From Nocardioides dongkuii (lineage in GTDB: Bacteria > Actinomycetota > Actinomycetes > Propionibacteriales > Nocardioidaceae): a stretch of 64,000 nt of DNA. The DNA lies in contig NZ_CP059903.1 in NCBI RefSeq assembly GCF_014127485.1, positions 1-64,000 on the forward strand, given 5' to 3'. Below the pieces are notes generated by a model, which saw nothing but the letters and a program-made list of their open reading frames with translations, was not told where the DNA came from and made no database searches. A program made the translations under genes and the position numbers. Below are positions 3,564-44,961 of the stretch, in pieces (position 1 is the first letter of the stretch; each line of letters begins with the position of its first letter).

Positions 3564-3629
3564 GCCGTTCCCGCGGCGCCTATGGTGGGCACCGACCGCT
3601 GGAAGCACCCCGAGGGAAGGACCCCGCAC

Positions 3630-4610: not shown

Positions 4611-4620
4611 CCGGCCGCAC

Positions 4621-5772: not shown

Positions 5773-6316
5773 GGACGAGGAGACCCCGGAGGCCGAGGCT
5801 GCCGCGCCGGCCGACCCCGACCGCCGCGACGACGGTCTCGACCTGGCCAAGGCGCTGACCCGCGCGACCGCGGGGTCGCTGCCCACCGCGCGCCGGCGCT
5901 CCCGCAAGCCGCCGCCGCGTACGTCGGGGGGCCGGGTCAGCGGGTCGCACCCCGATGACCGTGACCCGCAGCTGCTCGAGTCCACGCTCGGCCGGCTCGT
6001 GGGCGACCACGGCTGGGAGCTCGACCTGCGCGTGCACGGCGTCTTCGGCCGCTGGGCCGAGCTGGTCGGCGACGAGGTCGCGGCGCACTGCACGCCGGAG
6101 TCCTTCGCCGACGGCAAGCTCGTCGTGCGCACCGACTCCACCGCCTGGGCGACCCAGCTGCGGCTGCTCGCCCCGACCGTCGTCCGCCGGCTCAACGAGC
6201 AGCTGGGGCACGGCACCGTCGCGCTCCTGGAGGTGCTCGGCCCGAACCTGCCGTCGTGGAAGAAGGGCCTCCGCTCGGTCCGCGACGGGCGCGGTCCGCG
6301 CGACACCTACGGCTGA
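5765..6316 (+). CDS. DciA-like replication protein (DUF721)
   Basis: DUF721/DciA proteins help load the replicative helicase DnaB in bacteria lacking DnaC/DnaI; the family has been studied in mycobacteria. The 183-aa product has a disordered charged N-terminus (about 1-75) followed by the conserved domain with [19 protein letters not shown] and [19 protein letters not shown], and ends in a KH-like [10 protein letters not shown] stretch. The GTG start at 5765 overlaps the recF stop. The recF-dciA-gyrB order is the standard actinobacterial one. Confidence 0.9.
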
Positions 6317-6486
6317 CCGGGACGGGTCGACGGCGGCCGGACCGGCGAGGGGCACGCAGGACGATCCAGGAGCCGGGTCGACGTACGGGGATGCAGCGGG
6401 GACCCTGGTCGCCGCTTCCGGAGCCCTTCACGGGCCGCTCAGGGGCCGTCGCCGTCCACAGGGGACTCCCCGACACGGACAGACGC

Positions 6487-6515
6487 GTGTTCTGAGGCCC
6501 TCAGCGGGCTATCAT
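6487..6515 (+). promoter_or_regulatory. Possible gyrB promoter
   Basis: TATCAT at 6510-6515 is a fair -10 hexamer, with GTGTTC at 6487-6492 as a poor -35 at 17-bp spacing. It lies in the 290-bp gap between the dciA-like gene and the gyrB start. This is weak evidence by eye only. Confidence 0.3.
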
Positions 6516-6606
6516 GGGTCACAGGTCGCCGGTCCCGTGCCGCTGCGACCTTCTGTGTGTCACGCGACCTGCTCCAGGCGGGTCGCCCGTCAGCGAAGAG
6601 GTGTCC

Positions 6607-8742
<2,136 letters not shown>

Positions 8743-8793
8743 GGATCTAGCGACACCACTAGATATTCGTAGAACCGACCAGAGAGAGTCATC

Positions 8794-11570
<2,777 letters not shown>

Positions 11571-12518: not shown

Positions 12519-12594
12519 GGGGCCTTGGCGCAATTGGTAGCGCACCTGCTTTGCAAGCAGGGGGTTAGGGGTTCGAGTCCCCTAGGCTCCACCA
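12519..12594 (+). tRNA. tRNA-Ala (TGC), attachment site of the element
   Basis: The 73-nt tRNA plus encoded CCA has acceptor stem GGGGCCT/AGGCTCC (one G-T pair), anticodon TGC in the loop TTTGCAA, and T-loop GTTCGAGTC. Its 3' half, from the anticodon loop through CCA, is the left copy of the 49-bp att repeat, so the intact tRNA is regenerated at the left junction of the integrated element. Confidence 0.97.
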
Positions 12595-12598
12595 GGTA
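12550..12598 (+). repeat. attL (49-bp direct repeat, left copy)
   Basis: Runs from TTTGCAAGCAGGGGG in the tRNA-Ala anticodon loop to CCACCAGGTA just past the CCA. It is identical over 49 bp to 26703-26751. Flanks diverge immediately (GC before and A after on the left; GA before and G after on the right). Confidence 0.95.
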
Positions 12599-12687: not shown

Positions 12688-12799
12688 ACCGCGGATGCGC
12701 CCCCTAGCTCACTCGGCCAGGAATGTTGGGGCGTCCCGGCTCTCGACCACACGGACCTTGTTGCCCGAACCGGCGACGGGAGGGCCAGGCGCAAGGACA

Positions 12800-13582
12800 A
12801 TGCGATCCGTGCACTCGATCCCTCGCTCCCTTGCGCCGCGCAAGGGAGCGCGACGGCTTGTCGACGTGCCGAGGGAAATTCTTGCCGCGCTAGAACGCGG
12901 CATGCCCTCTGCCAACCACATCGAGCAGATGGCGATGGATCAGGGTGCCCTCCTAGCCTGGATGTATCCGGAGTTGGCGAGAGAGGGCGGTAGGTTGCGC
13001 GTCCCGCGCTTCCTCGACCGCATGCGCGCTGGAGCCGCACTCTCGTTGGAGCGCTTTGACGACGACCTTGTGTCGGTTGCCGCAACCTGGCCGAGCGACA
13101 CCGCAAGAGGGTGGGCGGCGTTCGCCGTCGGCATGAGGGATCGACCGCTGCCCGCATTGGTGGCCGAGGCAGTGGTCTACGGGGCCGATCCCCACTTCGC
13201 GGTCCGAGAGTGGGCGTGGTTGGGCATTAGGGGTCCCATTACCGGCGCACCCGTTGGCGCCGTTGAAGAGTTGCAGCGGTTGACTAGTTCGAAGGACCCC
13301 AACATCAGGCGATTCGCCGTCGAGGCTACGAGACCGCGCGGGGTCTGGAGCCGGCACATCCCGCTTCTCCTTCGAGAGCCGTGGATCGGCGAGCGACTCC
13401 TGGACGCCGTGATAGATGACCCGAGCCGGTATGTGCAGGACTCCGTGGCCAACTGGGTAAACGACGTCAGCCGATCGAATCCGGATTGGGTTCGCGCAAC
13501 CTGTCTGCGATGGGCACTAGGGTCTGGAACCCGCACTCGGGCATACGTCCTGCGAAGGGCTCAGCGCTCATTGAGGGGGTGA
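12800..13582 (+). CDS. AlkC/AlkD-like HEAT-repeat protein (DNA alkylation repair family)
   Basis: All-helical HEAT-repeat protein of the family that excises alkylated bases. It shows LVDVPREILAALERG near the start, REWAWLGIRG, KDPNIRRFAVEATRPRGVW, and the characteristic DDPSRYVQDSVANWVNDVSR then DWVRATCLRW and TRAYVLRRAQRSL. From ATG 12800 it is 260 aa. The start is uncertain: AAGGA lies only 2 nt before ATG 12800, GTG 12809 is possible, and ATG 12695 would add 35 unconserved residues. It is the first gene after attL; the IS lies 9 bp beyond its stop. Glycosylase activity is not shown by the sequence. Confidence 0.65.
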   Translation: MRSVHSIPRSLAPRKGARRLVDVPREILAALERGMPSANHIEQMAMDQGALLAWMYPELAREGGRLRVPRFLDRMRAGAALSLERFDDDLVSVAATWPSDTARGWAAFAVGMRDRPLPALVAEAVVYGADPHFAVREWAWLGIRGPITGAPVGAVEELQRLTSSKDPNIRRFAVEATRPRGVWSRHIPLLLREPWIGERLLDAVIDDPSRYVQDSVANWVNDVSRSNPDWVRATCLRWALGSGTRTRAYVLRRAQRSLRG

Positions 13583-13591
13583 CGCAGGCCG

Positions 13592-14994
13592 GACAGAGCC
13601 CCGTGGGGTGGTGGGCTTTGAGGTGATCCCCGATGCCTACGCGTCGCCGTTGTCGATGGCGGCGACGGGTTCAGTATCGCTGGTGGCGTAGAGCTTGGCC
13701 ATGGATCCTTCGGAGAGGTAGCGGCGGTCGCCTGCGATCCATTCGTCGTGCATGTCGATGACCACCGCTCCGACCAGTCTGATCACGGATGCGGCGTTGG
13801 GGAAGATGCCCACGACGCGGGAGCGGCGCTTGATCTCCTTGTTGACCCGCTCGAGCGGGTTGGTCGACCACATCTTGCGCCAGTGCTCGCGTGGGAACGC
13901 GGTGAAGGCGAGGACCTCGGCCTTCGCCTCGTCCATCAGCGGCCCGAGCTTGGGGAAGCGGGCGGCGAGCTCGTCGCGGGTCTTGTCCCACGCGGCATGG
14001 ACGTCCTCGGCGCTGGGTTGGGCGAAGATCATCCGGAACGCAGCGGCCACGTAGTCGGCCTGGCCCTTGGGGACGTGGGCCAGGAGGTTGCGGGCGAAGT
14101 GGACCCGGCACCGCTGGTGCGCGACGCCCTGGAAGGCGCGCTTCAACGCTTTGACGAGGCCGGCGTGCTGGTCGCTGATCACCAGCTTCACGCCGGCCAG
14201 GCCGCGTTGCTTGAGGCTGAGCAGGAAGCTGCGCGAGAAGACCTCGTCCTCGCTGTCGCCGACGTCTAGGCCGAGGATCTCGCGTTCACCGGTGGCGGTG
14301 ACACCGGTCGCGACGACCACCGCCATCGACACGACCTGGCCGCCCCTGCCGGGTGCGTTGCGGACGTGGAGGTAGGTCGCATCGAGGTAGATGTAGGGAA
14401 ACTCGACGTGGTCCAGGGTCCGGGTGCGGAACGCACCGACGGTCTCGTCGAGGCCGGTGCAGATCCGGGAGACCTCGGACTTGGAGACGCCCGTGCCGCC
14501 CATCGCTTCGACGAGATCGTCGACGCTGCGGGTGCAGATTCCGTGGACGTAGGCCTCCATCACCACCGCATACAGCGCCTGGTCGATGCGGCGGCGGGGC
14601 TCGAGGATGATCGGGAAGAACGAGCCTCTCCCCAGCTTGGGGATCCGCAGCTCGACGTCGCCGGCCTTGGTGGTCAGGAGCCGCGGCCGGTGGCCGTTGC
14701 GCTCGGTGACACGGTCCTCGGTGCGCTCATAGGGTGCGGCGCCGATCCGTTCGGTCGCTTCGAACTCGATCAGGTCCTGCAACGCGACCCGGCCGAGTCA
14801 CGGATCAGGTCGACGCCATCACCGGCACGGAACGCCTCAAGGAGCTCGGACAGGGCAGACTGGGGCAAGGCCATCGGTGGACCTCTTTCGGTGAGTGCTT
14901 GGCCGTACACACCGAAGATCCCGCCGATGGCCGTCTACGTGCTGACGCCCCGCCGCTGGTCCCTCAAACCCCACCACTCCCAGGGACTCTTAAG
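13592..14994 (-). mobile_element. IS256-family insertion sequence
   Basis: A 1.4-kb insertion encoding a Mutator/IS256-type transposase on the minus strand. Imperfect terminal inverted repeats (24 of 29 matching) lie at 13595-13623 and 14962-14990. The 8-bp sequence GCAGGCCG occurs directly at both edges (13584-13591 and 14995-15002), the target duplication expected for this family. The outermost bases differ by one position between ends, so the exact tips could shift by a base. It lies just after the AlkC-like stop and before the merR stop, interrupting neither. Confidence 0.85.
13637..14874 (-). pseudogene. IS256-family transposase, frameshifted near the N-terminus
   Basis: DDE transposase of the Mutator/IS256 family. 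The main frame (13637-14782) contains IYLDATYLHVRN with the first catalytic Asp, LVISDQHAGLVKALK with the second, and HWRKMWSTNPLERVNKEIKRR with the catalytic Glu region. The usual N-terminus, MALPQSALSELLEAFRAGDG and following, is encoded upstream from ATG 14874, with a good AGAGG site, but in another frame. The join needs one extra base near 14790-14797, where GACTCGGCCGGG replaces an expected GACTCGGTCCGGG. A translated 381-aa piece lacks about 30 N-terminal residues. Sequencing error or programmed frameshifting are alternatives. Confidence 0.8.
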
Positions 14995-15015: not shown

Positions 15016-15522
15016 CTACGAGGACAGACGCGTCGTCTCTGTCCGACTACTCCGGGACTCCCTGCGTCGCCGCTTTTCCGAGCGCACGGCGACTTCTTCG
15101 GCGATTGCCGACGTCTCGGCCTCCCACTGACCCAGTGGAAGCACCGTCGTATGCAGGACGAGCTGACCCGGCTTACGGATAGCGCTGACGATGCTCCCCC
15201 ACTGGTCTTGCAGGAAAACGTCCTGACCGTCCCAAACGAGTCGTGTCGAGTGAAGCGAGGCACTCGACTTCTCCAGGAGCCGAACGGCCTCCCGCACCTT
15301 CTGGAGCGGGCACCCGCTCTCGCGCAGCGCCTTGACCGCGCGGACGGCCATCACGTCTTGGAGAGACCACCAGCGCTCGTAGCGCTTGCCGGTCGAGCCG
15401 ATAACGGAGGGCGAGACCACCCGCACTCGAATCCAGTAGGCAAGAGTCGACGGCGCGACGTTGACCGCGGCACAAACGACGCTTGTGCGCACAGCGAGGG
15501 TGACGGTCGGGGAAGACGCCAT
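15016..15522 (-). CDS. MerR-family transcriptional regulator
   Basis: Winged-helix DNA-binding protein of about 168 aa from ATG 15522 (a GTG at 15546 would add 8 residues). The N-terminal half has the MerR layout: VVCAAVNVAPSTLAYWIR as the HTH, GKRYERWWSLQDVMAVRAVKALR as the wing and second helix, then SGCPLQKVREAVRLLEKS. The C-terminal half is short, without the metal-binding cysteines of classic MerR and without a known ligand domain. It is transcribed away from the deoxyribosyltransferase-MazG gene across a 96-bp gap holding an operator-like dyad. It is the likely local regulator of the cargo operon; the signal sensed is unknown. Confidence 0.8.
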   Translation of the reverse strand: MASSPTVTLAVRTSVVCAAVNVAPSTLAYWIRVRVVSPSVIGSTGKRYERWWSLQDVMAVRAVKALRESGCPLQKVREAVRLLEKSSASLHSTRLVWDGQDVFLQDQWGSIVSAIRKPGQLVLHTTVLPLGQWEAETSAIAEEVAVRSEKRRRRESRSSRTETTRLSS

Positions 15523-15538
15523 ACCCCATAGTAAAGCT

Positions 15539-15569
15539 AATGTCACTTTAGTCTCAAGTTTGGTAGGAT
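15539..15569. promoter_or_regulatory. Divergent promoter with MerR-type operator
   Basis: The dyad ACTTTAG-T-CTCAAGT (15545-15559, one mismatch between arms) lies between a -35-like AATGTC (15539-15544) and a -10-like TAGGAT (15564-15569). The 19-bp spacing is the elongated spacing typical of MerR-controlled promoters. The stretch is strikingly A/T-rich for this window. It would serve the operon beginning at 15619, and its overlap with the merR leader suggests autoregulation. Confidence 0.5.
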
Positions 15570-15618
15570 CACCCTCAGGAGGCCCGCCGGGGCTGACATC
15601 CAGGACCGAGGTAGTCCC

Positions 15619-16407
15619 ATGACCGTTCAGACGCTGGCACCCGCAGAATTTTCACCGTCCTCTGCCTCGCGCCGACAGTTGATGCGGACTGTCCTCTGTG
15701 GAAGTTTCCGACGCGATCCCGTCGGGCTGCGCGAGACCTTCGACTCTCTCCAGGACGAATTCCAGGTCCTCGCGCCGCGCAGTCTCGACTTCGTCGATCC
15801 CAACGCGGCCTTCGTTCGGCTGGCCGACGAGCACGACGAGAGCGCCCTGACGGTTGAGCGACGCCACCTCGACGCGATCTCCAACGCAGACTTCGTCTGG
15901 CTGCACGCCCCGGACGGCTACGTCGGCCTCAGCGCCTCGATGGAGATTGGACACGCACACGCACTCGGCATCCCCATCTTCACTGACGCCGTCCTCGCGG
16001 ACGAGATGCTCAACGGCCTCGTCCACCAGGTCTCTTCGCCGATCGAAGTCGAGGTCGAAGAGGTCGCCGGCTCGGTTGCCCCCGGCGCAGGGATTGGGGC
16101 ACTCCAGAGCTATTACGGGCGCGCCGCAGGTCGGCGGGGCTGGGACCAGGAGGGCGCTCGTGACACGCTCCTCATGTTGACCGAGGAGCTCGGCGAACTC
16201 GCTCGCGCCGTACGCAAGGCAGAAGGCCTCTCCCGAGCCGGCGGGTATCAGGAGGTCAATGTCGCGCACGAGGTTGCCGACGTGCAGCTCTACCTCGTGC
16301 ACCTGGCGAATACGCTCGGAGTTGATCTGGCCACGGCTGTCTCCGACAAGGAACGCATCAACGCGGCCCGCGCCACAGGTGATTCCGCCGCTAGGGCTTC
16401 CGCCTAG
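15619..16407 (+). CDS. Nucleoside deoxyribosyltransferase-like / MazG-like fusion protein
   Basis: A 262-aa two-domain protein. Residues about 20-125 form a Rossmann-like nucleoside 2-deoxyribosyltransferase-type domain: VLCGSFRRD at the start, ADFVWLHAPDGYVGLSASME, and EIGHAHALGIPIF, where E109 aligns with the family nucleophile. Residues about 165-250 are a MazG-type NTP pyrophosphohydrolase: LLMLTEELGELARAVRK with metal ligands E189, E190 and E193, then HEVADVQLYLVHLANTLGVDL with E218 and D221, then KERIN. Together they suggest recognition or cleavage of a nucleotide or nucleoside; the substrate is unknown. ATG 15619 has GAGG 8 nt upstream. Only 5 bp separate it from the AAA+ gene, so they form an operon. 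Confidence 0.75.
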   Translation: MTVQTLAPAEFSPSSASRRQLMRTVLCGSFRRDPVGLRETFDSLQDEFQVLAPRSLDFVDPNAAFVRLADEHDESALTVERRHLDAISNADFVWLHAPDGYVGLSASMEIGHAHALGIPIFTDAVLADEMLNGLVHQVSSPIEVEVEEVAGSVAPGAGIGALQSYYGRAAGRRGWDQEGARDTLLMLTEELGELARAVRKAEGLSRAGGYQEVNVAHEVADVQLYLVHLANTLGVDLATAVSDKERINAARATGDSAARASA

Positions 16408-16412
16408 ATCCG

Positions 16413-18782
16413 ATGGCTGCCCCCCAGCACAGTGATTTTGACCAACTGGCCGCCGATCGCCACTTCGTCCAAGAGTTCGTGGTCGATCACGAGCGAAGCG
16501 TCTTGACCTTTCGTGATGATGAAGCCACCGGCGGGACCGGTTGGTTCAAGCATCGCGAGGATGAGCAGCACATTGTCACTGACGGTAAACCCGTACGGCA
16601 TATCACGACCGTCCACACTTGCTGGGAATCCCTGCTCGAGGACCGGAAGGGAATTAGGTCTGACAACGACTCGGGGCTTCGTTACGCAGAGCGCCTCGGC
16701 GAGTTGGTGAAGTTCGCGAAGCTCGCCTTGCAGCACCCCGAGCATTGGCGCTCTGAGGAGGCAGGTTTCATCTACTGCCGGACGCGGACGCTTGGCGTGA
16801 TCACGCGCTATGCGCAGGAAGCTATCGAAGCGTTTCCGAGCGAGACGAAGGCTCTACTGCAGCAGATCTGGTCCTGCCAACCGGATAACAAGTTGCTCGG
16901 TGCCTATGGCGCACGTGAGGTCGTGATCGACCCGAACCTGGCTTCGGAGGCTCCCGCCACAGTCTCCTACCCCACAAACGCCTACCACACGTACTGGGCA
17001 ACTACGGCACTCCGCCGGGCACCGGCCAGCGCCTCTCCGCCTGAGAAGAACCAGCATCTGGCGGCGGGCAGCCATCGGCTACGGCTGATTGCAAGCGAAC
17101 AGATGGCTCTGCTCGCCGCGGACTCGCCGTTCGCCGATCCGCAGCAGTTGGCATGGGCCGTCACGGGGATCGTCTGCCACGCCGAGGGAACCGATCTCGT
17201 TCAAGGTGCCCAGACTTATCACATCGTCCGGCAGGGACTTCGAAACTTCTTCGACCAACAGGACCCGCGCGGCGACTGGCCGCGAGGAGCCCCCCTGTTC
17301 AACTACTCGAACGGCTCAGGGAACGCGTACTGCTACATATTCGAGACCCTTGGCGAGATGCTCGCGGTAGCCACGGATCCTGCCGTCAATGAGCACCGCC
17401 AGTTCGCCAACATGCTTCGGCCGTATGCCGACAACTTGGTGAACCTTCTCCGGCACGCCGATGCCACTGCATTGAGGACCGGAGGTGGACGGGGATGGAT
17501 CTCCGGGCATAGTCCAAACGCATACAACGCCGAGGCCTGGGCTACGGCCTCGATATTCAGGTATGCGCAGAGACTGCGACTCCTCCTCGGATCATGGACG
17601 AATCAGACGGCCCAGGCGGACCTTGGAGCACGCACCGCGACGAAGGGCAAGAAGGATCTGGCTCGGCGGGGCGGAACATGGAACCTCGGATTCGGGACCG
17701 CCGGAACCCAGTTGTCGACGAACTTTGCCCTTCCCACAGTTGCCCTGGCTTTGAAGCATCCACCTTGCTCCGACCACTTCACTGAGGACCCAGACGAGGA
17801 GGTCATCGCGGATGGCGCAGGCCGGTCCGCGGTCCTCTTTGGCCCACCCGGGACGGGCAAGACCACCCTGGCCGAGGCACTGGCCGGACGGATGGGATGG
17901 CCGTTCGTGGAAATTACGCCCGACATGTTCCTGAATGAGGGACTGGACATGGTGTCGGCGCGTGCCGACCAGGTCTTCCGCCGGATGATGGAGCTCGACC
18001 GGTGCGTGATCCTCCTGGACGAGATCGATGAACTCGTCCAGAAGCGTGGACAAGACGCACCTCAGCTCTCGCGGTTCTTTACGACCACCATGCTGCCGCG
18101 ACTGTCGAAGTTGTGGACCGCAGGGAAGGTGCTCTTCTTCGCAAACACGAACAACATCGAGGACGTTGACCCCGCCATTAAGAGGTCCGGACGCTTCGAT
18201 GCCGCTCTTTTCGTCCTGCCGCCCGGGCCAGACGCAAAGACAACCGTGCTCCTGAAGGAGCACAAGATCGAGGTGTCGCCGGACGTATGGGCAAAGGCGG
18301 AAAGTGGGATTCGAAAGGGAGTCGACGACGATCAGGCTGCCGCGTGGCTGGCGTTGATCAGGTATGACCAGCTGGCCTCGTTGGCTCAGGCAGTCAAGAA
18401 CCTCCCCGATCTCAACGACAAAATCACCGCCACCAACGTCGAGTCGGGTGTGCGAGGCCTCAAAAGCGATCTCTTGACCAACGACTGGTCGCACGCCGCC
18501 GGGACCAACGGCGCGCAGGAGCCGACCCCGCACGATCTGGTGAAGAAGTTGATCGACAGTCAGAGGCGCGAGCAGAGGCTCTTCCCGGTAGTGGAGTACA
18601 GCGGCACGAGCCTTGACGACGCTGACCCGATCGTAGTAGGGCAGCCATACTGGCGCCTCCGGATCACGCCAAAGGACCTCGACAACCACTTCCCCGACGA
18701 GATGAACCTGCTCCCTAGCGGGGAACTTCAAGACGGCACGGTCGCTACGGTCAGCAGTGAAGTAGCAGCCGCCGGGTCATGA
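16413..18782 (+). CDS. AAA+ ATPase with large N-terminal helical domain
   Basis: A 789-aa protein in two parts. Residues about 1-440 are a helical region with aromatic- and glycine-rich repeats such as GDWPRGAPLFNYSNGSGNAYCY, then GWISGHSPNAYNAEAWATASIFRYAQRLRLLLG, which suggest an alpha-alpha toroid, though no LanC zinc ligands or terpene-cyclase acids are evident. Residues about 470-640 form an AAA+ domain of the FtsH/Cdc48 type: Walker A GPPGTGKT at 477-484, Walker B CVILLDEIDE with D536/E537, a sensor in LFFANTNN, and the arginine finger R594 in KRSGRFD. A 130-residue C-terminal tail follows. It may act as an NTP-driven unfoldase or sensor for its operon partners; function is unknown. Confidence 0.7.
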   Translation: MAAPQHSDFDQLAADRHFVQEFVVDHERSVLTFRDDEATGGTGWFKHREDEQHIVTDGKPVRHITTVHTCWESLLEDRKGIRSDNDSGLRYAERLGELVKFAKLALQHPEHWRSEEAGFIYCRTRTLGVITRYAQEAIEAFPSETKALLQQIWSCQPDNKLLGAYGAREVVIDPNLASEAPATVSYPTNAYHTYWATTALRRAPASASPPEKNQHLAAGSHRLRLIASEQMALLAADSPFADPQQLAWAVTGIVCHAEGTDLVQGAQTYHIVRQGLRNFFDQQDPRGDWPRGAPLFNYSNGSGNAYCYIFETLGEMLAVATDPAVNEHRQFANMLRPYADNLVNLLRHADATALRTGGGRGWISGHSPNAYNAEAWATASIFRYAQRLRLLLGSWTNQTAQADLGARTATKGKKDLARRGGTWNLGFGTAGTQLSTNFALPTVALALKHPPCSDHFTEDPDEEVIADGAGRSAVLFGPPGTGKTTLAEALAGRMGWPFVEITPDMFLNEGLDMVSARADQVFRRMMELDRCVILLDEIDELVQKRGQDAPQLSRFFTTTMLPRLSKLWTAGKVLFFANTNNIEDVDPAIKRSGRFDAALFVLPPGPDAKTTVLLKEHKIEVSPDVWAKAESGIRKGVDDDQAAAWLALIRYDQLASLAQAVKNLPDLNDKITATNVESGVRGLKSDLLTNDWSHAAGTNGAQEPTPHDLVKKLIDSQRREQRLFPVVEYSGTSLDDADPIVVGQPYWRLRITPKDLDNHFPDEMNLLPSGELQDGTVATVSSEVAAAGS

Positions 18783-19342
18783 CGAAGGTCGTAGTGCTGG
18801 CGGGGCCGATTGCCGTTGGAAAGACGGCGGTGGCGGACGCCCTGGCTGACCAACTTCTCGCAGATGTCGTAAGCGCCCGGCGTGTGCTGTTGCGAGAGAC
18901 AGGGGCCGAAGCGGACCGCACCTCGCTCCAGACCGGCGGCAGGCTCTTGGATCAACGCACAAACGGCCGGTGGCTGCTCTATGCCTTGGAGGAGCGCCTC
19001 GATCAGTCCGAAAAGGACCTGATCGTCCTCGACTCCGCTAGGACTATGCGGCAGACGGTCCCGATACTCGAGAACCTCAGCACAGCCCGGCTTGTCTACC
19101 TGGAAGCCAACACAGATGCGAGGCGGATCCGCTATGCCAGGTCCGCGGCGAGTGACGAGGTAAAGAGATCTGCCGACTTCGCGGTTAGTGGAGAGCACAT
19201 CACCGAGCGGAACATCTTGGACCTTAGGACTGGAGCGGATCTTCGGTTAGACACCACCTCGCTGACCCTGGGGGAGACCGTCGAAGCTGTCGTCCAGGAA
19301 CTTGGTCTCCGAACGTCCTGGCTTCAAGACGACCGACCGTGA
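18779..19342 (+). CDS. P-loop kinase-like protein (nucleotide kinase/AAA_33-like)
   Basis: A 187-aa single-domain protein with Walker A GPIAVGKT at residues 9-16 and the overall plan of small P-loop kinases: a LID-like middle with VDLxxx-type turns, ARLVYLEANTDARRIRYARS as the strand and helix after the lid, and a C-terminal RLDTTSLTLGETVEAV. It resembles dNMP/adenylate-kinase-type enzymes more than signalling GTPases. The ATG overlaps the AAA+ stop (ATGA), so translation is coupled. With the MazG fusion upstream, a nucleotide substrate is plausible but unproven. Confidence 0.6.
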   Translation: MTKVVVLAGPIAVGKTAVADALADQLLADVVSARRVLLRETGAEADRTSLQTGGRLLDQRTNGRWLLYALEERLDQSEKDLIVLDSARTMRQTVPILENLSTARLVYLEANTDARRIRYARSAASDEVKRSADFAVSGEHITERNILDLRTGADLRLDTTSLTLGETVEAVVQELGLRTSWLQDDRP

Positions 19343-19508: not shown

Positions 19509-22157
19509 GTGACGAGGCCGATGCACGGGGGAGTGAAGTTCTACCGCGGCTCCGCCGCCGCCGCGCGCTCCTACGTCGAGGCCGACCACTCACGCGCCGA
19601 CGACTACTACCTGGCCGAAGGCAGCGGCCTGGCCGAGCACTACCTCGCCGGCCCCGGAGCTGTGCGGCGCGTCGGCGACCTCGACGGCCCGACGTACGAG
19701 CGCTGGGTCGGCGGGTACGACGTGCTGACCGGCGCAGCCAAGGGGCGCCTGCGTGACGACTCACGGGCGCTGCGGTTCGTTGAGGTCACCGTGAACGGAC
19801 CGAAGTCCTGGTCGCTCGCCGCCGCCCTGCACCCCGACATCGCAGCGGCGTACGACGCCGCGATGGATCGAGCAGCGGGCGAAGTGATCGGGTGGGTGGC
19901 CGAGCACGCCACCACCCGGCTCGGGCCACGCGGCCGACAGGTGCAGGTGCCGGTCGAGATAGTTGAGGCCGCCGTCGTACGCCACTACACCTCGCGAGCC
20001 GGCGACCCGCACCGCCACCTCCACGTGCAGATCAACGCGCGCGTCTTCGCATGCGGAGCATGGCGCGGCCTGCACTCGGTCGGCGTCGTGGACAGCGTCG
20101 AGGCACTCAACGGCATCGGCCATGCCGCCGTGATGTGCGACCCCGAGTTCCGGGCCGCGCTCGCGGGCCGCGGCTACAGCCTCGACGACGACGGCGAGAT
20201 CCAGCAGCTCGCGCCGTACGCCGGCGGGTTCAGCCAGCGCACTGCCCAGATCAACCGCAACGTCGACCGCTACGAGGCCGCATGGCGAGCCGAACACCCC
20301 GACGAAGAACCCGGCCCGCGACTGCGCCGTACCTGGGACCGACGCGCCTGGTCGGACGCACGGCCCGACAAGGTCGTACCCCGGAGCGGCGCCGACCTCG
20401 TCTCCGCATGGAACAGCGAACTCCGCGACCTCGGCTTCACCCCACCGACCAGCCGCGCGTCAGAGCCAGGTCTTCAAATCGGCCGGCTCAACCGCGACGT
20501 CGCCGCCGACCTCGTGCTCACCCGGCTCGGCGCCAAGCGGTCGGCGTGGAACGCAGCCGACATCCGCGGCGAGGCCGAACGGCTGATCTCCTCCGCCGGG
20601 GTGGTCGCCGCGCGACCCGTCCGGCACGAGCTGGTCGAGGACGTCGCCGACCGTGCGCGAGCACGATGCGTGCCGCTGCTGGAACGCGACGACGTCCCGG
20701 GGCACGTCCGCAGCCTGACGTCCGAGCACGTCCTTACCGTCGAGGCCAACCTGGTCGACAGCATCGCTGTCCGCTCCATGCGGCCGGTCTCTGACGCGGT
20801 CCGGCTCCGCGGGATCGCGCGCCTCGACCCCGCACAACGGCGCGTCGTCGCGGCCCTCGCCGGGGACGCGGGCCTTCTGGTGATCGAAGGCGCAGCCGGC
20901 ACCGGCAAGACCACCACCCTGGCCGCCGCGCGCCAGGTCCTCGACGACGTCGATCGTCGACTGGTGGTCGTCACGCCCACGCTTAAGGCCGCCCAAGCAG
21001 CGCGACAGCAGGTCGGCACCGACGCCTTCTCCGCCGCCTGGCTCGTTCACCAGCACGGCTACCGCTGGGATGACGACGGAGACTGGTCGCGGACCGAGGC
21101 AGCGCCCGAGGCCCGCGCACGTCTGCTCCCCGGCGATGTCCTGCTCGTCGACGAGGCCGGCATGCTCGACCAGGACACCGCTCGCGCGCTGTTCGCCATC
21201 GCCGACCGGGCGGAGGCCACCGTCGCGCTCCTCGGAGATCGTCACCAGCTCTCGGCCGTCGGCCGCGGCGGCGTCCTCGACCTCGCCACGCGCTGGGTGA
21301 GACCCGAGGCGCACCACGAGCTCGAGTCGGTCCACCGGTTCAGCGATCCGGCGTACGCCGACCTCAGCCTCCTCATGCGAACCGGTGAGCGTGCTGGTGA
21401 GGTCTTCGACGCCCTCCTCGAACGTGGCGAGCTCGTCGTCCACGCCAGCCAGGTCGAACGCACGGCTGCCCTGGCCACCATCGGCGCCGACGGCGACCAG
21501 CTCGTCATCACCGACACCCGCGACCAGGTCGGCGCACTCAACGCGGCGATCCGCGACCGGCGCTTCGTTGGTGAGCAGTCTGGTGAACTCACCACGCGCC
21601 GTGGTGAGTCGATCGCTCTCGGTGACCGGGTCGCCACCCGACGCAACGACCGCGACCTCGAGGTCGCCAACCGCGACACCTGGACCGTGGCCGGGGTCGG
21701 TGATGACGGCAGCTTGCTCGTCACCGGGCGGGCAGGCCGACGCACCCTGCCCGCCGCGTACGTCACCGATCACGTCGAGCTCGCCTTCACCACCACCGCC
21801 TACGGAGCCCAGGGCGAGACTGTCGACTCGGCCCATCTTGCGATCGGAGAGACGACCGGCGCCGCCTCTGCGTACGTCGGCATGACTCGCGGACGCCACC
21901 GCAACACCGCCCACCTCGTCGCCGAGTCCACTGACGACGCCCGAAGCCAATGGGTCGACGTCTTCAACCGCGATCGCGCCGACCTCGGCCCCAGGAACGC
22001 AGCGGCGAGAGCCGAGGAGGACATCGACCGGTACGGCCCGAACCCCCAACCGTCTCTTGCTGGAATCCAAGCCGCGGCGCTACGAGACGCGTCCAGGCGC
22101 CAACCTCCGCCCCCGACCCCGGCCTTCCCGACCGGCTCCCGTGGGATCGGCCGCTGA
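19509..22157 (+). CDS. MobF-family relaxase-helicase (TrwC/TraA-like)
   Basis: Nicks oriT and unwinds DNA for conjugal transfer. The 882-aa protein has an N-terminal TrwC relaxase domain with the start MHGGVKFYRGSAAAARSYVE, tyrosines in ADDYYLAEG, and the three-histidine metal site DPHRHLHVQIN (H168, H170, H172). The C-terminal half is a RecD-like helicase with Walker A GAAGTGKT at 461-468, LLVDEAGMLD, GDRHQLSAVGRGG and a late AYGAQGETVDSAH motif. GTG 19509 and ATG 19521 are both possible; the family start favours 19521. Length is near that of actinobacterial TraA proteins. It is the only transfer gene visible in the element. Confidence 0.92.
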   Translation: MTRPMHGGVKFYRGSAAAARSYVEADHSRADDYYLAEGSGLAEHYLAGPGAVRRVGDLDGPTYERWVGGYDVLTGAAKGRLRDDSRALRFVEVTVNGPKSWSLAAALHPDIAAAYDAAMDRAAGEVIGWVAEHATTRLGPRGRQVQVPVEIVEAAVVRHYTSRAGDPHRHLHVQINARVFACGAWRGLHSVGVVDSVEALNGIGHAAVMCDPEFRAALAGRGYSLDDDGEIQQLAPYAGGFSQRTAQINRNVDRYEAAWRAEHPDEEPGPRLRRTWDRRAWSDARPDKVVPRSGADLVSAWNSELRDLGFTPPTSRASEPGLQIGRLNRDVAADLVLTRLGAKRSAWNAADIRGEAERLISSAGVVAARPVRHELVEDVADRARARCVPLLERDDVPGHVRSLTSEHVLTVEANLVDSIAVRSMRPVSDAVRLRGIARLDPAQRRVVAALAGDAGLLVIEGAAGTGKTTTLAAARQVLDDVDRRLVVVTPTLKAAQAARQQVGTDAFSAAWLVHQHGYRWDDDGDWSRTEAAPEARARLLPGDVLLVDEAGMLDQDTARALFAIADRAEATVALLGDRHQLSAVGRGGVLDLATRWVRPEAHHELESVHRFSDPAYADLSLLMRTGERAGEVFDALLERGELVVHASQVERTAALATIGADGDQLVITDTRDQVGALNAAIRDRRFVGEQSGELTTRRGESIALGDRVATRRNDRDLEVANRDTWTVAGVGDDGSLLVTGRAGRRTLPAAYVTDHVELAFTTTAYGAQGETVDSAHLAIGETTGAASAYVGMTRGRHRNTAHLVAESTDDARSQWVDVFNRDRADLGPRNAAARAEEDIDRYGPNPQPSLAGIQAAALRDASRRQPPPPTPAFPTGSRGIGR

Positions 22158-22892: not shown

Positions 22893-23128
22893 ATCTCTAG
22901 GGAAGATGGTTCTATCTACCCCTAGCTAGATACCAAGTTCATACCGTCGTCGGGCCTCACCAGCCAGACGGCATACCGTAGCTGGTCGCCTCCGTGACGC
23001 CAACCGTCGCGATGCGAGAGGAACCAGCCTCCTACGGGGGTGGCGAGAGGTAACGAACGCCACACGGTCACTGCCCAGACGTGTCGACGACATGATCCGA
23101 GATAGCCCTCCTGGTCGGAGGGCTTTCT
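22893..23128 (+). ncRNA. Structured leader or small RNA ending in a terminator
   Basis: About 235 nt without a convincing reading frame lie between the promoter and an intrinsic terminator. Visible stems are CCATCT/AGATGG near 22891-22909, ATACCGTC/GACGGCAT at 22941-22974 (one mismatch), and CTGGT/ACCAG spanning 22982-23027 with extra pairing inside. ACCAGC in the second loop could instead pair with GCTGGT at 22981, giving alternative folds. It could be an attenuator, a stand-alone small RNA, or an RNA partner of the genes that follow. No recognised riboswitch consensus is seen. Confidence 0.4.
23104..23128 (+). terminator. Intrinsic terminator in front of module-2 genes
   Basis: AGCCCTCC-TGGTC-GGAGGGCT forms a perfect 8-bp stem with a 5-nt loop followed by TTCT. 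It ends only 8 nt before the AGGAGG ribosome binding site of the next gene, so it would cut transcription of that gene unless read through. Confidence 0.7.
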
Positions 23129-23148
23129 CTGCATTAGGAGGTCATGTC

Positions 23149-24129
23149 ATGACAACCGGTGAAGACATCAACGCCCGCCGCAACGAGGCGTTCGCGGCAA
23201 CGTGCGAGATAGTCCGTGATTGGCGTAATTCCGGCCGTCGCACCACCACCGCCGGGCTCACGTCGACGCTCAAGATCGACGGAATTCTGGACATCGAGTC
23301 CCTTGGGATGGCGACGAATAGGGAGTTCTGGGAGCAGGCGACTGCGTTGGGGTTCCTCTCCGTCCAGCAACAGTCGAATGGGCATCGGTTCGTGTTGTTG
23401 CCCGGCGAGCAGTTGAGTGACTTCGAAGAGGTGCACGCGGCGCAGCACCCCAGGACCGTCGCCCCGTTAGACGCCGAACTTCGCCTCAAGAGCGACGTGT
23501 GGACCTCCTTCGTCGATTGGAACTTGTCTTTTCGCCGTTTCTGGGACCGGTCGCACGATCGCGCCTTTATGGTTCCGGCTATTCCGGGCTGGACGCCCGA
23601 GGTGGTCGACGCCAGCCGTTTCTCCGAAATCGCACCCGCGCTGCAGGATATGCAGATCGATTGGATGAAAAGTTTCGCTGAAAGACAGCCGGACCCTGAT
23701 CGCACAGCTCTGCGGGTGTCGTTGTCAGAAAACGCGCCGCGCGGGGCGTTCCGCCGCGAACTGCGCGAGCGAGGCCTGAACCGGGCATGGCGAGAGGCTC
23801 TGAGGGCACACATTCTCGATGTGGCCATCGCTTGGGCCGACGAAGCCAACATCGAAGTGTCCTCAATCATGGAGACCCGGCATCGCGATACCGATCCGGT
23901 CACGCGGTCCGAGGCACCCACGCGCAGCCCAGCGGGGTCGGCCCCCGTGCAGGTGCGGACGGCCCGTCAGGGCGCGGCCACGGTGACTGGATGTGATGGG
24001 ACGGGCGAGACTTCGGGCCTCACGCGCACCGAGATGCTGCGTGCCAAGCTCCATCGCGCCATCGACCAGATGACATGGGACGAGCTCGCTCAGATTCCCG
24101 TGCGCGCCGAGCACCTGCTGGACTCCTGA
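23149..24129 (+). CDS. Hypothetical protein with UPF0158-like segment
   Basis: A 326-aa protein started by ATG 23149 with a strong AGGAGG 7 nt upstream. The N-terminus (about 5-90) could be a winged-helix fold: EIVRDWRNSGRRTTTAGLTS, FWEQATALGFLSVQQQSNGHRFVLLPG. The centre (about 195-245) resembles UPF0158: APRGAFRRELRERGLNRAWR, then LRAHILDVAIAWADEANIEV. The C-terminal third is low-complexity, then a helical end. No catalytic motif is evident. It is 10 bp upstream of the next gene, so the two form an operon behind the structured leader. Function unknown. Confidence 0.6.
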   Translation: MTTGEDINARRNEAFAATCEIVRDWRNSGRRTTTAGLTSTLKIDGILDIESLGMATNREFWEQATALGFLSVQQQSNGHRFVLLPGEQLSDFEEVHAAQHPRTVAPLDAELRLKSDVWTSFVDWNLSFRRFWDRSHDRAFMVPAIPGWTPEVVDASRFSEIAPALQDMQIDWMKSFAERQPDPDRTALRVSLSENAPRGAFRRELRERGLNRAWREALRAHILDVAIAWADEANIEVSSIMETRHRDTDPVTRSEAPTRSPAGSAPVQVRTARQGAATVTGCDGTGETSGLTRTEMLRAKLHRAIDQMTWDELAQIPVRAEHLLDS

Positions 24130-24139
24130 GGTTCGCGCT

Positions 24140-25291
24140 GTGTCCAAGAACGACAAGGCAAGGTTCGACTGTCGCGCCCTGCCCTACTTGGAGACGATCG
24201 GCAAGCCGTTGCCGCACGCCGACGTCGGCGCTGCGCTGCTCCGCTCCGGTTCCAGCAGTCCGATCCGTGCCGAGATTCAGGCTCGCAGCGACTTGTCGTT
24301 CGTTGAGGACGTCGTCTCCTCGCTCCATGCCCAGATCTCGGGCAACCTGACCGAAGCCGATGCGCGCAGCTTCGCGTTCGCCGTCCTCGCCCTCCCCACC
24401 GTCGCGACGCAGAACGGCAGCCGTGGCGAGCAACAGATCCTTCAGTCGGTCGTCGTATCTGGACATCCTGACGACTTCGACGCTGAGGTGACCGTGCGCC
24501 TTCGCGCCGTCCCTGGTGCACCTGGCACTGCGAAGCTCGTCTCAGCAGACCTCGGTCACGTAGACGCGGGCGATGCCGCTGACCAGTGCGCGCTCGTCGC
24601 GAAGGTCGAAGAGTGGTGGACCGAGTTCCCGATGCCGAACGTGCTGGTGCCCTCTCCGCTTCCGCTGAGGGATTGGGCGTGGCTCGGCGACCCTGAGCAC
24701 CTGGGCATTCTCGAAGTTCCCGCGGACTGGCGCGTTCGGGTCACGCGATTGGGCGGCGTTTACGGCGTCGCGCCGCTTGTCGTGGAGTCAGCGGGCCAGA
24801 TGCTCACGTGGAACGTCGTGGACCGCATCGAGCACGCGGTTGTGTTGCGCGGCAGCAAGGCAGCTGGCGAGCTTCCTACTGACTCTGACGTCGCTTCGGC
24901 CGACAGCTCCCTCGAAGTCACGGAATGGGGATACGGGGGAGAGCGGTTCGACGCCGTTCTGACGCAAGTGCGCAGCCACCTCCTCGCCGAAGCGGTTGCG
25001 GCCAGCCAGCCGGTCCCGTCGAGCAGGATGCTCGAGGCCGGAGAAGTGATTTACCACCGCAAGGTCGGCAACTCCAGGAAGTTCGACCGCTTCGATGCGG
25101 GCAGTACCGAACCGTGTGGCCATGGCGCCAGCGCGTTCAAAGCCTGGGGCGGGGACAAGGCAATCAAGGGTATGGCGCGCCGCTACGAGAACTTCACCGC
25201 CGCCATGCTCGTGCATTGCGAGAAGTTCCCCAACTGCGGGATGTACGGCGTGCAGGCTGCCCGGGGAGGGCTCAAGAGGACCGAGGATTAG
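24140..25291 (+). CDS. Hypothetical protein of element cargo module 2
   Basis: A 383-aa protein from GTG 24140 that I cannot assign to a family. It is mixed alpha/beta, Trp- and Pro-rich in the middle (EEWWTEFPMPNVLVPSPLPL, RDWAWLGDPEHLG), with no membrane segment or signal. The C-terminus has spaced Cys/His residues: CGHGASAFKAWGG, then VHCEKFPNCGMYG, which may bind a metal. It follows the UPF0158-like gene by 10 bp and ends 70 bp before the convergent integrase. Base composition is nearer the other cargo than the host genes. Confidence 0.5.
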   Translation: MSKNDKARFDCRALPYLETIGKPLPHADVGAALLRSGSSSPIRAEIQARSDLSFVEDVVSSLHAQISGNLTEADARSFAFAVLALPTVATQNGSRGEQQILQSVVVSGHPDDFDAEVTVRLRAVPGAPGTAKLVSADLGHVDAGDAADQCALVAKVEEWWTEFPMPNVLVPSPLPLRDWAWLGDPEHLGILEVPADWRVRVTRLGGVYGVAPLVVESAGQMLTWNVVDRIEHAVVLRGSKAAGELPTDSDVASADSSLEVTEWGYGGERFDAVLTQVRSHLLAEAVAASQPVPSSRMLEAGEVIYHRKVGNSRKFDRFDAGSTEPCGHGASAFKAWGGDKAIKGMARRYENFTAAMLVHCEKFPNCGMYGVQAARGGLKRTED

Positions 25292-25361: not shown

Positions 25362-26537
25362 CTATGGTCGGTTCTCGAGCCACGCCTCGTAGGTTGCTCC
25401 GATCTTCTCCGCGAGTGACCTATCGCGGTCGACGGTGGCGTGCTGGTAGATCGCCATTGCGGCTTGGGAAGCGTGGCCGGCACGTGCCTGGAGCTCGGCC
25501 GCGGTCGCGCCGTGCTGACCGGCGATCGTCAGCGCGGTGTGACGCAGGTGGTGGATGGTCAGGTCGGGTCGACCAGCAGCCTCGCGGGCAGGGCGGTAGC
25601 GGTCCATCAGGTACCGCACGCTCATGTGGTCGGTCCGGTCGCCGCCGAACAGCAGTCCAGCCGGCCCGGGAGCGGTGTGCTCGAGCAGGTGCTTCTGCAG
25701 CATCGGGAGGAATGGCGGCGGGACATGCACGGTGCGAACTCCGCTGGCCGTCTTCGGTGCGCTGATGACCCGACCACAGTTGGGGCAGGCGTCCTTGGCC
25801 CCAGGGATCACGTCCTTGTCGACCTTGCGGGTCACGCTGACCCGACCGCTGATGCCGTCGATGTCGGAGCGTCGCAGCTCCAGCAGCTCGCCCTGGCGGA
25901 GTCCGACGAACGCGGCGAGCACGATGAGCAGTCGCAGCCGCTCGGGCATCGCCTCAGTGATGACTGCCAGCTCGTCGAGGGTCGCCGGCACGGCGAGCCT
26001 CTTCACGCGGGCCGATCCGGCGCCGCGGATCTTCGGTGGCGCACGGAAGATGAGCTCCTCCTCCTCGGCCGACTGGAGGATCGATCGCACGAGCCGGTAC
26101 GCCGCGGCGTTGCTCGACTCGGTCGCGGGATCGAGCGAGGCGCGCCACTGCTTGATCTCCGACAGGGTGACCTCGGTCAGCGGCATCGCGCCGAAGTACG
26201 GGAGGATCCGCGACCGCAGCAGCTGCTGGTAGTTCCGCTGGGTGGTGGGCCGCAGGCCGCGCTCGTCCAGGAAGCGCTCGGCGAACGAGCCGACCGTGTT
26301 CCAGGCCGCGGCGGACTGGCGCTTGGACTCCGCCACCTGGCGTGCCCTGGGCGGGGTCCACTCCTCCCGGTCGACCAACGCCCGCTCCGCGGCGAGCCAC
26401 GCCTCGGCGTCCATCTTGGTGGCGAGGGTGCGGGAGTAGCGGGTGCCGTCGGGCATGGCGTAGCGAGCGCGGTGGGTCACCTTGCCGGTCGCGCTGACCC
26501 GCCGCTCGACCTCACCGAAGCCCCGTCTCCTGGCCAT
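25362..26537 (-). CDS. int: Tyrosine site-specific integrase
   Basis: A 391-aa phage/ICE-type recombinase that integrates the element at tRNA-Ala. It has an N-terminal arm-binding region (1-75), a SAM-like core-binding domain (about 78-165) and a catalytic domain with R214 (VGLRQGELLEL), H329/R332 in HHLRHT, H355 in ARAGHAS and nucleophile Y364 in MAIYQHA. An unusual insert near 250-258, DACPNCGRV, carries a Cys-x-x-Cys pair like half a zinc ribbon. It starts 165 bp inside attR and reads away from it. Confidence 0.95.
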   Translation of the reverse strand: MARRRGFGEVERRVSATGKVTHRARYAMPDGTRYSRTLATKMDAEAWLAAERALVDREEWTPPRARQVAESKRQSAAAWNTVGSFAERFLDERGLRPTTQRNYQQLLRSRILPYFGAMPLTEVTLSEIKQWRASLDPATESSNAAAYRLVRSILQSAEEEELIFRAPPKIRGAGSARVKRLAVPATLDELAVITEAMPERLRLLIVLAAFVGLRQGELLELRRSDIDGISGRVSVTRKVDKDVIPGAKDACPNCGRVISAPKTASGVRTVHVPPPFLPMLQKHLLEHTAPGPAGLLFGGDRTDHMSVRYLMDRYRPAREAAGRPDLTIHHLRHTALTIAGQHGATAAELQARAGHASQAAMAIYQHATVDRDRSLAEKIGATYEAWLENRP

Positions 26538-26600
26538 CCGAGGGCCGCCCTTCGATCCCGAGTCCTAACCCCCTGCTTGGTTGGCAACGGGAGTCCCTGT

Positions 26601-26702: not shown

Positions 26703-26751
26703 TTTGCAAGCAGGGGGTTAGGGGTTCGAGTCCCCTAGGCTCCACCAGGTA
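26703..26751 (+). repeat. attR (49-bp direct repeat, right copy)
   Basis: Identical over 49 bp to 12550-12598. It is the displaced 3' part of tRNA-Ala from the anticodon loop through CCACCAGGTA, without a 5' half, so it is not a functional tRNA. It marks the right junction. Confidence 0.95.
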
Positions 26752-44877: not shown

Positions 44878-44961
44878 GCGCGAGTGGCGGAATAGGCAGA
44901 CGCGCACGGTTCAGGTCCGTGTGTCCGAAAGGACGTGGGGGTTCAACTCCCCCCTCGCGCA
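44878..44961 (+). tRNA. tRNA-Leu (CAG)
   Basis: 84-nt class II tRNA: acceptor GCGCGAG/CTCGCGC with discriminator A, anticodon stem CACGG/CCGTG with loop TTCAGGT giving CAG, variable arm TGTCCGAAAGGACG and T-loop GTTCAACTC. CCA is not encoded. In actinobacteria a tRNA-Leu often sits upstream of fhaA, as here. Confidence 0.97.

What the first reader, a model, noticed from the sequence alone, without database searches (positions are those of the whole stretch)
15016..19342. Candidate undescribed module: MerR regulator plus deoxyribosyltransferase-MazG fusion, toroid-like AAA+ ATPase and P-loop kinase
Three genes are packed as an operon (gaps of 5 and -4 bp), divergent from a MerR regulator with an operator-like dyad, and carried as cargo on a mobilizable element. 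All three products are built from nucleotide-handling or ATP-driven parts. Such compact sets on elements are often defence or nucleotide-surveillance systems. I do not know a described system with this gene set. Function is inference; operon layout and motifs are direct.
Basis: partly seen in the sequence, partly recalled or inferred. Interest (0 to 1): 0.85.

Follow-up and report, generated by a model that had tools for sequence, protein, structure and literature searches.

The report
Mobile deoxynucleotide-handling gene island
A mobile DNA element in a bacterium carries a rare but conserved set of genes predicted to break down particular DNA building blocks and to remove bases from DNA, probably as a defence against phages or DNA-damaging chemicals; no described system with this gene set was found in the searches made.

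Summary
Inside a 14.2-kb integrated element (49-bp repeats at tRNA-Ala, integrase, TrwC relaxase) lie an AlkC-type DNA glycosylase-like gene, a MerR-like regulator and a tight operon: deoxyribosyltransferase-like (NDT)-MazG fusion, AAA+ ATPase with an unassigned N-terminal half, and P-loop kinase. A Mutator/IS256-type transposase gene separates the glycosylase from the rest. The same order recurs in two other species near tRNA-Leu, with an unrelated HTH-like protein in the regulator's place. Among 215 congeneric genomes, the AAA+ protein, the near-full-length fusion and the strongest kinase matches occur in the same three.

Distant relatives tie the parts to deoxynucleotide metabolism on mobile DNA: the kinase is fused to PurZ-like synthetases elsewhere, and AAA+/NDT-like pairs lie on rhizobial plasmids and a viral contig. 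A characterised Z-phage enzyme, DmtZ-DutZ (PMC12884076), has the same two-step logic.

Best reading: a regulated module that destroys a selected deoxynucleotide (dNTP to dNMP to base plus sugar phosphate) and removes bases from DNA, for defence against phages or genotoxins. All functions are inferred. The 'toroid' was not confirmed; of the operator dyad only a short, weak form was seen.

The parts
12550..12598 (.). attL-like 49-bp direct repeat (3' part of tRNA-Ala, gene 12519-12594)
   Evidence: exact repeat with 26703-26751
12695..13582 (+). AlkC-type HEAT-repeat DNA glycosylase-like protein (295 aa as called; the true start may lie further in)
   Evidence: profile of it and 2 homologues matches AlkC structures 5vhv/5vi0 at 3e-22 over 131 of 285 profile positions; Pfam DNA_alkylation above cut-off in L010, below it (0.092) in the window protein itself; same place and orientation in L010 and L051
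13637..14782 (-). Mutator/IS256-type transposase gene between the glycosylase and the rest; not at this place in L010/L051
   Evidence: Transposase_mut 1.4e-138
15016..15546 (-). MerR-like regulator (start may be the in-frame ATG at 15522)
   Evidence: MerR_1 1.6e-6
15532..15550 (.). short dyad TAAAG-N9-CTTTA between regulator and operon; weak, may be chance
   Evidence: read; no arms of 8 bp or more
15619..16407 (+). NDT-like + MazG fusion (262 aa): Glu109 at the NDT nucleophile position and the EExxE...ExxD metal motif conserved in 3 of 3
16413..18782 (+). AAA+ ATPase (789 aa) with unassigned N-terminal region (about 1-470) and C-terminal tail
   Evidence: AAA 1.7e-25; Walker A/B and neighbouring core motifs invariant in 3 homologues
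18779..19342 (+). P-loop kinase (187 aa), same family as the kinase domain fused to PurZ-like synthetases elsewhere
19509..22157 (+). TrwC-type relaxase/helicase of the carrier element
   Evidence: TrwC 2.6e-51
25362..26537 (-). tyrosine integrase of the carrier element
   Evidence: Phage_integrase 3.3e-14
26703..26751 (.). attR-like 49-bp direct repeat

Best explanation
A mobile, regulated module that removes a chosen deoxynucleotide from the pool and bases from DNA. Steps: (1) the MerR-like protein controls the divergent operon (inferred from layout). (2) The MazG half cuts a dNTP to dNMP plus pyrophosphate (inferred from family and intact metal motif). (3) The NDT-like half, in the same polypeptide, cleaves that dNMP to base plus deoxyribose 5-phosphate (inferred; the same two-step logic is shown biochemically for phage DmtZ-DutZ, and the second step for DNPH1). 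(4) The AAA+ protein acts as an ATP-driven sensor or switch that gates the enzymes (a guess). (5) The P-loop protein is a deoxynucleoside-monophosphate kinase (inferred from fusion of its family to PurZ-like enzymes). (6) The AlkC-type protein excises the matching or damaged base from DNA (inferred from family). The purpose most likely is defence of the cell or the element against phage or other foreign DNA replication.
For: Conserved order and orientation in 3 genomes at 2 sites despite only 41-55% protein identity to the window's. Near-full-length copies confined to the same 3 of 215 genomes. AAA+ with a DUF4406 (NDT-superfamily) gene on Rhizobium and Sinorhizobium plasmids, and a similar pair on a viral contig downstream of a phage lysozyme gene. 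Parabacteroides: ThyX, AAA+, HIT and PRA-PH genes in a row. Kinase family fused to synthetases with PurZ's Ser instead of PurA's Asp, near PurB-like, DCD-like and PRA-PH genes in G128 and one gene away from a family A DNA polymerase in a viral contig. The third rhizobial partner (P3) also sits by a gene annotated as anti-phage dGTPase. DmtZ-DutZ chemistry: PMC12884076.
Against: No activity was tested. The NDT assignment is sub-threshold in Pfam; the DNPH1/Rcl match of the fusion profile is weak (E 0.06-0.34) and was absent with the NDT-only profile A17. By eye no Tyr stands where DNPH1/DmtZ have a catalytic Tyr. The AAA core alone matches 651 plasmid records, so core similarity singles nothing out; the N-terminal link to the rhizobial and Parabacteroides proteins is weak (hhalign single-comparison E 1e-4 to 7e-4, probability 26-56%). 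No PADLOC model marks the module or the four other element proteins scanned, apart from AAA/P-loop matches. The regulator is not conserved. Only one genus carries the full set, so the three loci may stem from few transfers.
Confidence: 0.42

Rival explanations
1. A self-protection kit against DNA-alkylating or base-analogue genotoxins: a MerR-type sensor of the chemical induces a pool cleaner (MazG, then NDT, removes damaged dNTPs) and an AlkC-type glycosylase that removes the damaged base from DNA.
For: AlkC-type gene in 3 of 3 loci; an AlkD-related glycosylase serves self-resistance in a genotoxin cluster (PMC8626424, abstract start and passages; PMC8934636, search listing only); the MazG half best matches dCTP pyrophosphatase, and DNPH1 is a pool sanitiser (PMC10603095, passages); MerR regulators often sense small molecules (established knowledge).
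Against: Relatives of the kinase and AAA+ sit with PurZ-like, thymidylate synthase or, through P3, dGTPase genes, which are not repair genes; a tRNA-site mobile element fits defence cargo equally well; two AlkC-like relatives opened elsewhere stand with MarR and DUF6616 genes, without this module, so the glycosylase can travel alone; the regulators of the other two loci are not MerR by Pfam. Whether biosynthetic genes lie elsewhere in the genome was not searched.
Confidence: 0.25
2. A module tied to non-canonical deoxynucleotides such as 2-aminoadenine (Z): it makes, senses or removes a modified deoxypurine.
For: The kinase family is elsewhere fused to PurZ-like synthetases with the PurZ serine; the NDT-dNTPase fusion parallels DmtZ-DutZ of Z-phages; G128 holds PurZ-like, PurB-like, DCD-like and PRA-PH genes together.
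Against: The window's genome has one adenylosuccinate synthetase, of PurA type with Asp; the PurZ-like fusions form their own branch (32-40% identity to the two phage enzymes, 30-31% to two PurA), so their substrate is unproven; MazG replaces the Dut fold of DutZ.
Confidence: 0.18
3. Neighbouring but functionally separate cargo genes (nucleotide hydrolase, ATPase, kinase) that happen to have been carried together.
For: Separate MazG-like and NDT-like genes are common (72 of the 75 matching genomes of 215 have partial hits only); AlkC-like genes occur elsewhere without the module.
Against: Order kept in 3 genomes at 2 sites while sequences diverged to 41-55%; overlapping frames; near-full-length copies confined to the same 3 genomes.
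Confidence: 0.1

Closest known systems
DmtZ-DutZ fusion of PurZ0-type Z-DNA phages (PMC12884076)
   Same: NDT-fold N-terminal domain joined to a C-terminal dNTP pyrophosphohydrolase; two-step dNTP to dNMP to base plus deoxyribose 5-phosphate; the Glu nucleophile column lines up with the window protein (phage HunterDalle protein taken as DmtZ-DutZ by its position and dUTPase domain)
   Different: C-terminal half is a dUTPase fold (PF00692), not MazG; phage gene near PurZ0, no AAA+, kinase or glycosylase operon seen beside it
Kinase-PurZ-like fusions on rhizobial and Methylobacterium plasmids, a viral contig and in G128 (this work)
   Same: same P-loop kinase family; mobile or variable contexts; nucleotide enzymes around
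   Different: kinase fused to a synthetase; DUF7002, P3 and HD genes (in those opened and scanned) instead of AAA+ and NDT-MazG
AAA+/DUF4406/P3 sets on Rhizobium and Sinorhizobium plasmids and a similar pair on contig L080 (this work)
   Same: AAA+ with a long unassigned N-terminal half next to an NDT-superfamily protein
   Different: N-termini only about 17% identical to the window's; no MazG, kinase or glycosylase seen beside them; extra P3 protein
Nucleotide-targeting defence systems: dGTPase type, retron NDT-like effectors (both largely recalled), and DefensePredictor systems (PMC13092281, passages), whose validated set names thymidylate synthase, dNMP kinase, 5-hmdU kinase and NMAD domains in a figure legend
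   Same: use nucleotide-metabolism enzymes, including kinase-type parts
   Different: this gene set is not named in the passages seen; MazG there is only a prediction
AlkC/AlkD DNA glycosylases
   Same: profile match to AlkC, 3e-22
   Different: no tested activity; key AlkC residues were not checked against a paper

Membership tests
MazG/all-alpha NTP pyrophosphohydrolase | sequence match above curated cut-off | tested here: met
   PF03819 25.1 bits, cut-off 22
MazG/all-alpha NTP pyrophosphohydrolase | metal motif EExxE...ExxD (motif recalled) | tested here: met
   3 of 3 homologues
NDT/DNPH1 superfamily | sequence match above curated cut-off | tested here: not met
   PF05014 14.1 bits (window) and 18.8 (L010), cut-off 28.8; Rcl/DNPH1 E 0.06-0.34 with A14, none with A17
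NDT/DNPH1 superfamily | Glu nucleophile in the conserved ExGxA segment | tested here: met
   E109 invariant in 3 of 3 and aligned with the phage NDT-dUTPase protein and two DUF4406 proteins
NDT/DNPH1 superfamily | catalytic Tyr near the N-terminal strand | tested here: inconclusive
   no Tyr at the matching place by eye; the alignment there is poor
DmtZ-DutZ | dUTPase-fold C-terminal domain | tested here: not met
   window has MazG; phage protein has dUTPase
AlkC/AlkD glycosylases | profile similarity to solved AlkC | tested here: met
   3e-22 over 131 of 285 positions; window protein alone is below the Pfam DNA_alkylation cut-off
AlkC/AlkD glycosylases | catalytic residues and base excision | not tested
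   AlkC paper not held
IetAS / other PADLOC systems | match over the whole protein with its partner gene | tested here: not met
   best IetA match covers the AAA domain only (474-613); no partner model in the proteins scanned
Z-DNA synthesis cassette | PurZ (PurA homologue with Ser for the catalytic Asp) | tested here: not met
   one PF00709 match in the window's genome, with Asp
Anti-phage defence system | reduced phage plating when expressed | not testable with these tools
   needs an experiment

The most novel reading that the evidence does not exclude
Bacterial mobile islands hold an undescribed network of cassettes, built from interchangeable parts (N-terminally extended AAA+, NDT/DUF4406, MazG/PRA-PH, P-loop kinase, PurZ-like synthetase, P3, DUF7002, HD, glycosylase), that make, sense or destroy a non-canonical deoxynucleotide. 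The window's module would be the branch that destroys it and cuts it out of DNA, perhaps directed against phages with modified purines such as 2-aminoadenine.
Probability: 0.22. Interest if true: 0.9.

Novelty: new variant of a known kind. Interest (0 to 1): 0.7.

Why it matters
It links parts not known to belong together (an AlkC-type glycosylase, an NDT-MazG fusion, a AAA+ protein with an unassigned N-terminal region, and a kinase family elsewhere fused to PurZ-like enzymes) in one conserved mobile unit. It suggests that the chemistry phages use to change their DNA has counterparts on bacterial mobile elements. The enzymes are small and can be assayed directly, so whether bacteria defend themselves by editing single deoxynucleotide pools becomes testable here.

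Tried and rejected
AlphaFold2 on the AAA+ N-terminal region (476 aa) and on the kinase, each from one sequence: pLDDT 36 and 37, not used; no fold search was run. So 'toroid' is neither shown nor excluded. PDB profile searches with the AAA+ N-terminal regions: nothing useful. Scans of genome contigs with the AAA+ protein (no relative) and with the fusion (one MazG-only locus). Viral contigs with the fusion and with the AAA+ pair: none. Plasmids with the fusion: no match. Phages with the window's AAA+ protein: 42 records, the 20 listed matching around the AAA domain only. Phages with the L051 fusion: 8 records, short C-terminal hits at E 0.03-1. Plasmid hits H3 and H35 were opened, showed no nucleotide-enzyme neighbours and were dropped; most of the 651 plasmid records were not opened. 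Of the partial hits, four were opened (G782, G524, G428, G467, two cut by contig ends); none showed the module. A 2-aminoadenine synthesis cassette in the window itself was rejected: its genome has only a PurA-type synthetase. The regulator is not conserved: BLASTP of window versus L010 found nothing; those of L010 and L051 have only sub-threshold HTH matches.
Full report
THE THING ITSELF. G+C falls to 62-64% there, against 0.69-0.77 in most other 1-kb bins. An exact 49-bp repeat (12550-12598 and 26703-26751) contains the 3' part of tRNA-Ala; between the copies lie a tyrosine integrase and a TrwC relaxase. So the module is cargo of a roughly 14.2-kb integrated element. Two other element genes (23092-24129, 24140-25291) have no Pfam match at 0.1.

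A FIFTH GENE. The first gene inside the element, 12695-13582, had no NCBIfam match and only sub-threshold Pfam matches, but a profile of it and two homologues matches the DNA glycosylase AlkC at 3e-22 over 131 of 285 positions. It is separated from the regulator by a Mutator-family (IS256-type) transposase gene (Transposase_mut 1.4e-138). In both other loci the glycosylase gene stands directly next to the HTH-like gene, with no transposase between. The transposase in the window is therefore probably a later insertion; its exact ends and target repeats were not found.

CONSERVED UNIT. In 215 congeneric genomes the AAA+ N-terminal profile matches 3. The fusion profile matches 75 at E <= 0.001; 3 of them cover nearly the whole fusion (model positions 1-269, 4-269, 15-268 of 269) and 72 only partly. 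The kinase profile matches 41: 3 at E below 1e-76, one at 9e-31 (G128), the other 37 at 2e-5 or weaker. The three strong genomes are the same each time. In flipped orientation all three loci read glycosylase>, <HTH protein, NDT-MazG>, AAA+>, kinase>. Identities to the window are 49% (glycosylase), 53-55% (fusion), 41% (AAA+), 45-46% (kinase). G357 and G1137 have the set near tRNA-Leu(CAG); the window has a tRNA-Leu(CAG) gene at 44878 and the module at tRNA-Ala instead. No second copy of that tRNA's end was found within the fetched 19 kb of those two loci, so they are not shown to be the same kind of element. The regulators do not align (window versus L010), and those of L010 and L051 have only sub-threshold HTH matches. 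Both tRNA-Leu loci carry a second NDT-like gene after the kinase; none was seen in the window between the kinase and the relaxase. Wider sampling found no further full set: order, 391 genomes, 2 hits, own and one congener; class, 393, own only; phylum with the fusion, 396, 54 with any match, own only at full length. These sets are drawn from larger groups, so absence elsewhere is not shown.

PROTEIN PARTS. Fusion: MazG above the Pfam cut-off; best solved relatives are dCTP pyrophosphatase and MazG proteins; metal motif EExxE...ExxD in 3 of 3. The NDT half is sub-threshold in Pfam (0.054; 0.0018 in L010), weakly like Rcl/DNPH1 (0.06-0.34; no such match with the NDT-only profile), with an invariant Glu that aligns with the NDT nucleophile. 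In DNPH1 D80 and E104 are catalytic, with Y24 in the triad (PMC10603095, passages); the window's D91 and E109 fit by position, but a catalytic Tyr is not evident. AAA+: canonical ATPase core, N-terminal 470 residues unassigned. Kinase: weak matches to nucleotide-kinase-like P-loop families and to RapZ-like proteins.

RELATIVES ELSEWHERE. (a) AAA+/DUF4406: Sinorhizobium meliloti psymA (L053) and Rhizobium beringeri pRlX4 (two records, L054/L055) have an AAA+ protein followed by a DUF4406 protein, fused or next to a ~450-aa protein here called P3. Viral-collection contig L080 has a 43% identical AAA+ followed by a 649-aa protein that by eye looks like the L053 fusion (Pfam reported no domain in it), downstream of a phage lysozyme gene. 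The AAA core alone matches 651 plasmid records, so it does not single these out; what does is the match running into the N-terminal half (from 330 or 361) and the NDT-type neighbour. The N-terminal halves are only about 17% identical, with hhalign single-comparison E of 4e-4, 7e-4 and 1e-4 among the three groups and probabilities of 34, 26 and 56%: a shared N-terminal domain is suggested, not proved. (b) Parabacteroides (L052): ThyX, AAA+, HIT and PRA-PH genes in a row, followed by dihydrofolate reductase. (c) Kinase: tblastn finds 7 plasmid records (4 Rhizobium, 2 Agrobacterium, 1 Sinorhizobium; best 2e-13), 6 of them under a gene annotated as adenylosuccinate synthetase, of which it is the N-terminal part (both domains confirmed by Pfam in L011). 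The same fusion is in Methylobacterium (L058), in a viral contig one gene away from a family A DNA polymerase (L079) and in congener G128. The four fusions aligned and the two phage enzymes aligned have Ser (GSE) where the two host PurA have Asp (GDE). PMC12884076 states that this Asp is 99% conserved in the PurA group and is Ser in all 147 phage PurZ-group sequences (passage). G128 also has PRA-PH, DCD-like (just below cut-off), lyase-family (PurB-like by reading), IrrE-type peptidase and DUF7002 genes nearby. A small tree puts the fusions apart from the phage enzymes and PurA, with weak support inside. (d) P3 is in 13 plasmid records: 3 with AAA+/DUF4406; 8 with kinase-PurZ-like (seven share the accessions, six of these opened as L011, L012, L061-L064 and one judged by coordinates only; plus Methylobacterium, L058, opened); 2 with dGTPase, PfkB and QueC-like genes, one of these dGTPases annotated as anti-phage.

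MECHANISM. PMC12884076 (abstract, passages and the Discussion section seen) shows that Z-phages use DmtZ, an NDT-family enzyme that hydrolyses dAMP and transfers its sugar phosphate to the Z base, and DutZ, which hydrolyses dATP and dGTP; 77 of 85 dmtZ genes are fused to dutZ. The window protein has the same order, NDT first, dNTP pyrophosphohydrolase second, with MazG in place of the Dut fold. This makes a two-step destruction of a deoxynucleotide the simplest reading. The kinase's relatives suggest a dNMP kinase, and the AlkC-type protein would act on DNA. The AAA+ protein's role and the regulator's signal are guesses. Shown here: gene set, element, conserved order, motifs, co-occurrence. 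Inferred: all activities, and the purpose.

KNOWN OR NEW. PADLOC gives only AAA-domain or P-loop matches for the module proteins and none for the glycosylase, three other element genes, DUF4406, P3 and DUF7002; the kinase-PurZ-like protein has a weak P-loop match to VakA. Literature searches (open full-text library only) listed no paper that I recognised as describing this set. DefensePredictor (PMC13092281, passages) validated a thymidylate synthase and a 5-hydroxymethyluracil kinase among new defence domains, names dNMP kinase and NMAD domains in the same figure legend, and predicts MazG systems; the 2015 nucleotide-centric survey that it cites is not held, so overlap with that survey cannot be excluded. 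Hence 'new variant of a known kind'.

LIMITS. One genus carries the full set; the three loci may stem from few transfers, so identical distributions of neighbouring genes are not independent evidence. E-values from 2- to 5-row profiles are rough. No function was tested.

Noticed in passing
window 13637-14782: Mutator/IS256-type transposase gene inside the element, between the glycosylase gene and the regulator; the two homologous loci lack it at that place.
   Followed up: partly
L081 (G128) 2625-9986: A congener carries DCD-like, PurB-like lyase, PRA-PH, IrrE-peptidase, kinase-PurZ-like and DUF7002 genes together: a possible bacterial modified-purine cassette.
   Followed up: partly
L079 3792-9677: Viral contig with a kinase-PurZ-like fusion one gene away from a family A DNA polymerase; possibly a modified-DNA phage.
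   Followed up: partly
L059 4151-10024; L060 6929-13087: The P3 protein of rhizobia near dGTPase, PfkB kinase and 7-cyano-7-deazaguanine synthase genes.
   Followed up: no
L048 5775-7960; L009 7875-10735: MazG-type genes next to a large helicase-like protein (by eye) in two genomes; may be another recurring pair.
   Followed up: no
L010 7065-7673; L051 about 7743-8159 (within ORF 7407-8357): Second NDT-like gene behind the kinase in both tRNA-Leu loci, not seen in the window.
   Followed up: partly
L052 6472-11177: Parabacteroides row of ThyX, AAA+, HIT and PRA-PH genes, a possible distant cousin of the module.
   Followed up: partly
window 26564-26579: A 16-base inverted copy of part of the att repeat lies just inside the right end of the element.
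   Followed up: no
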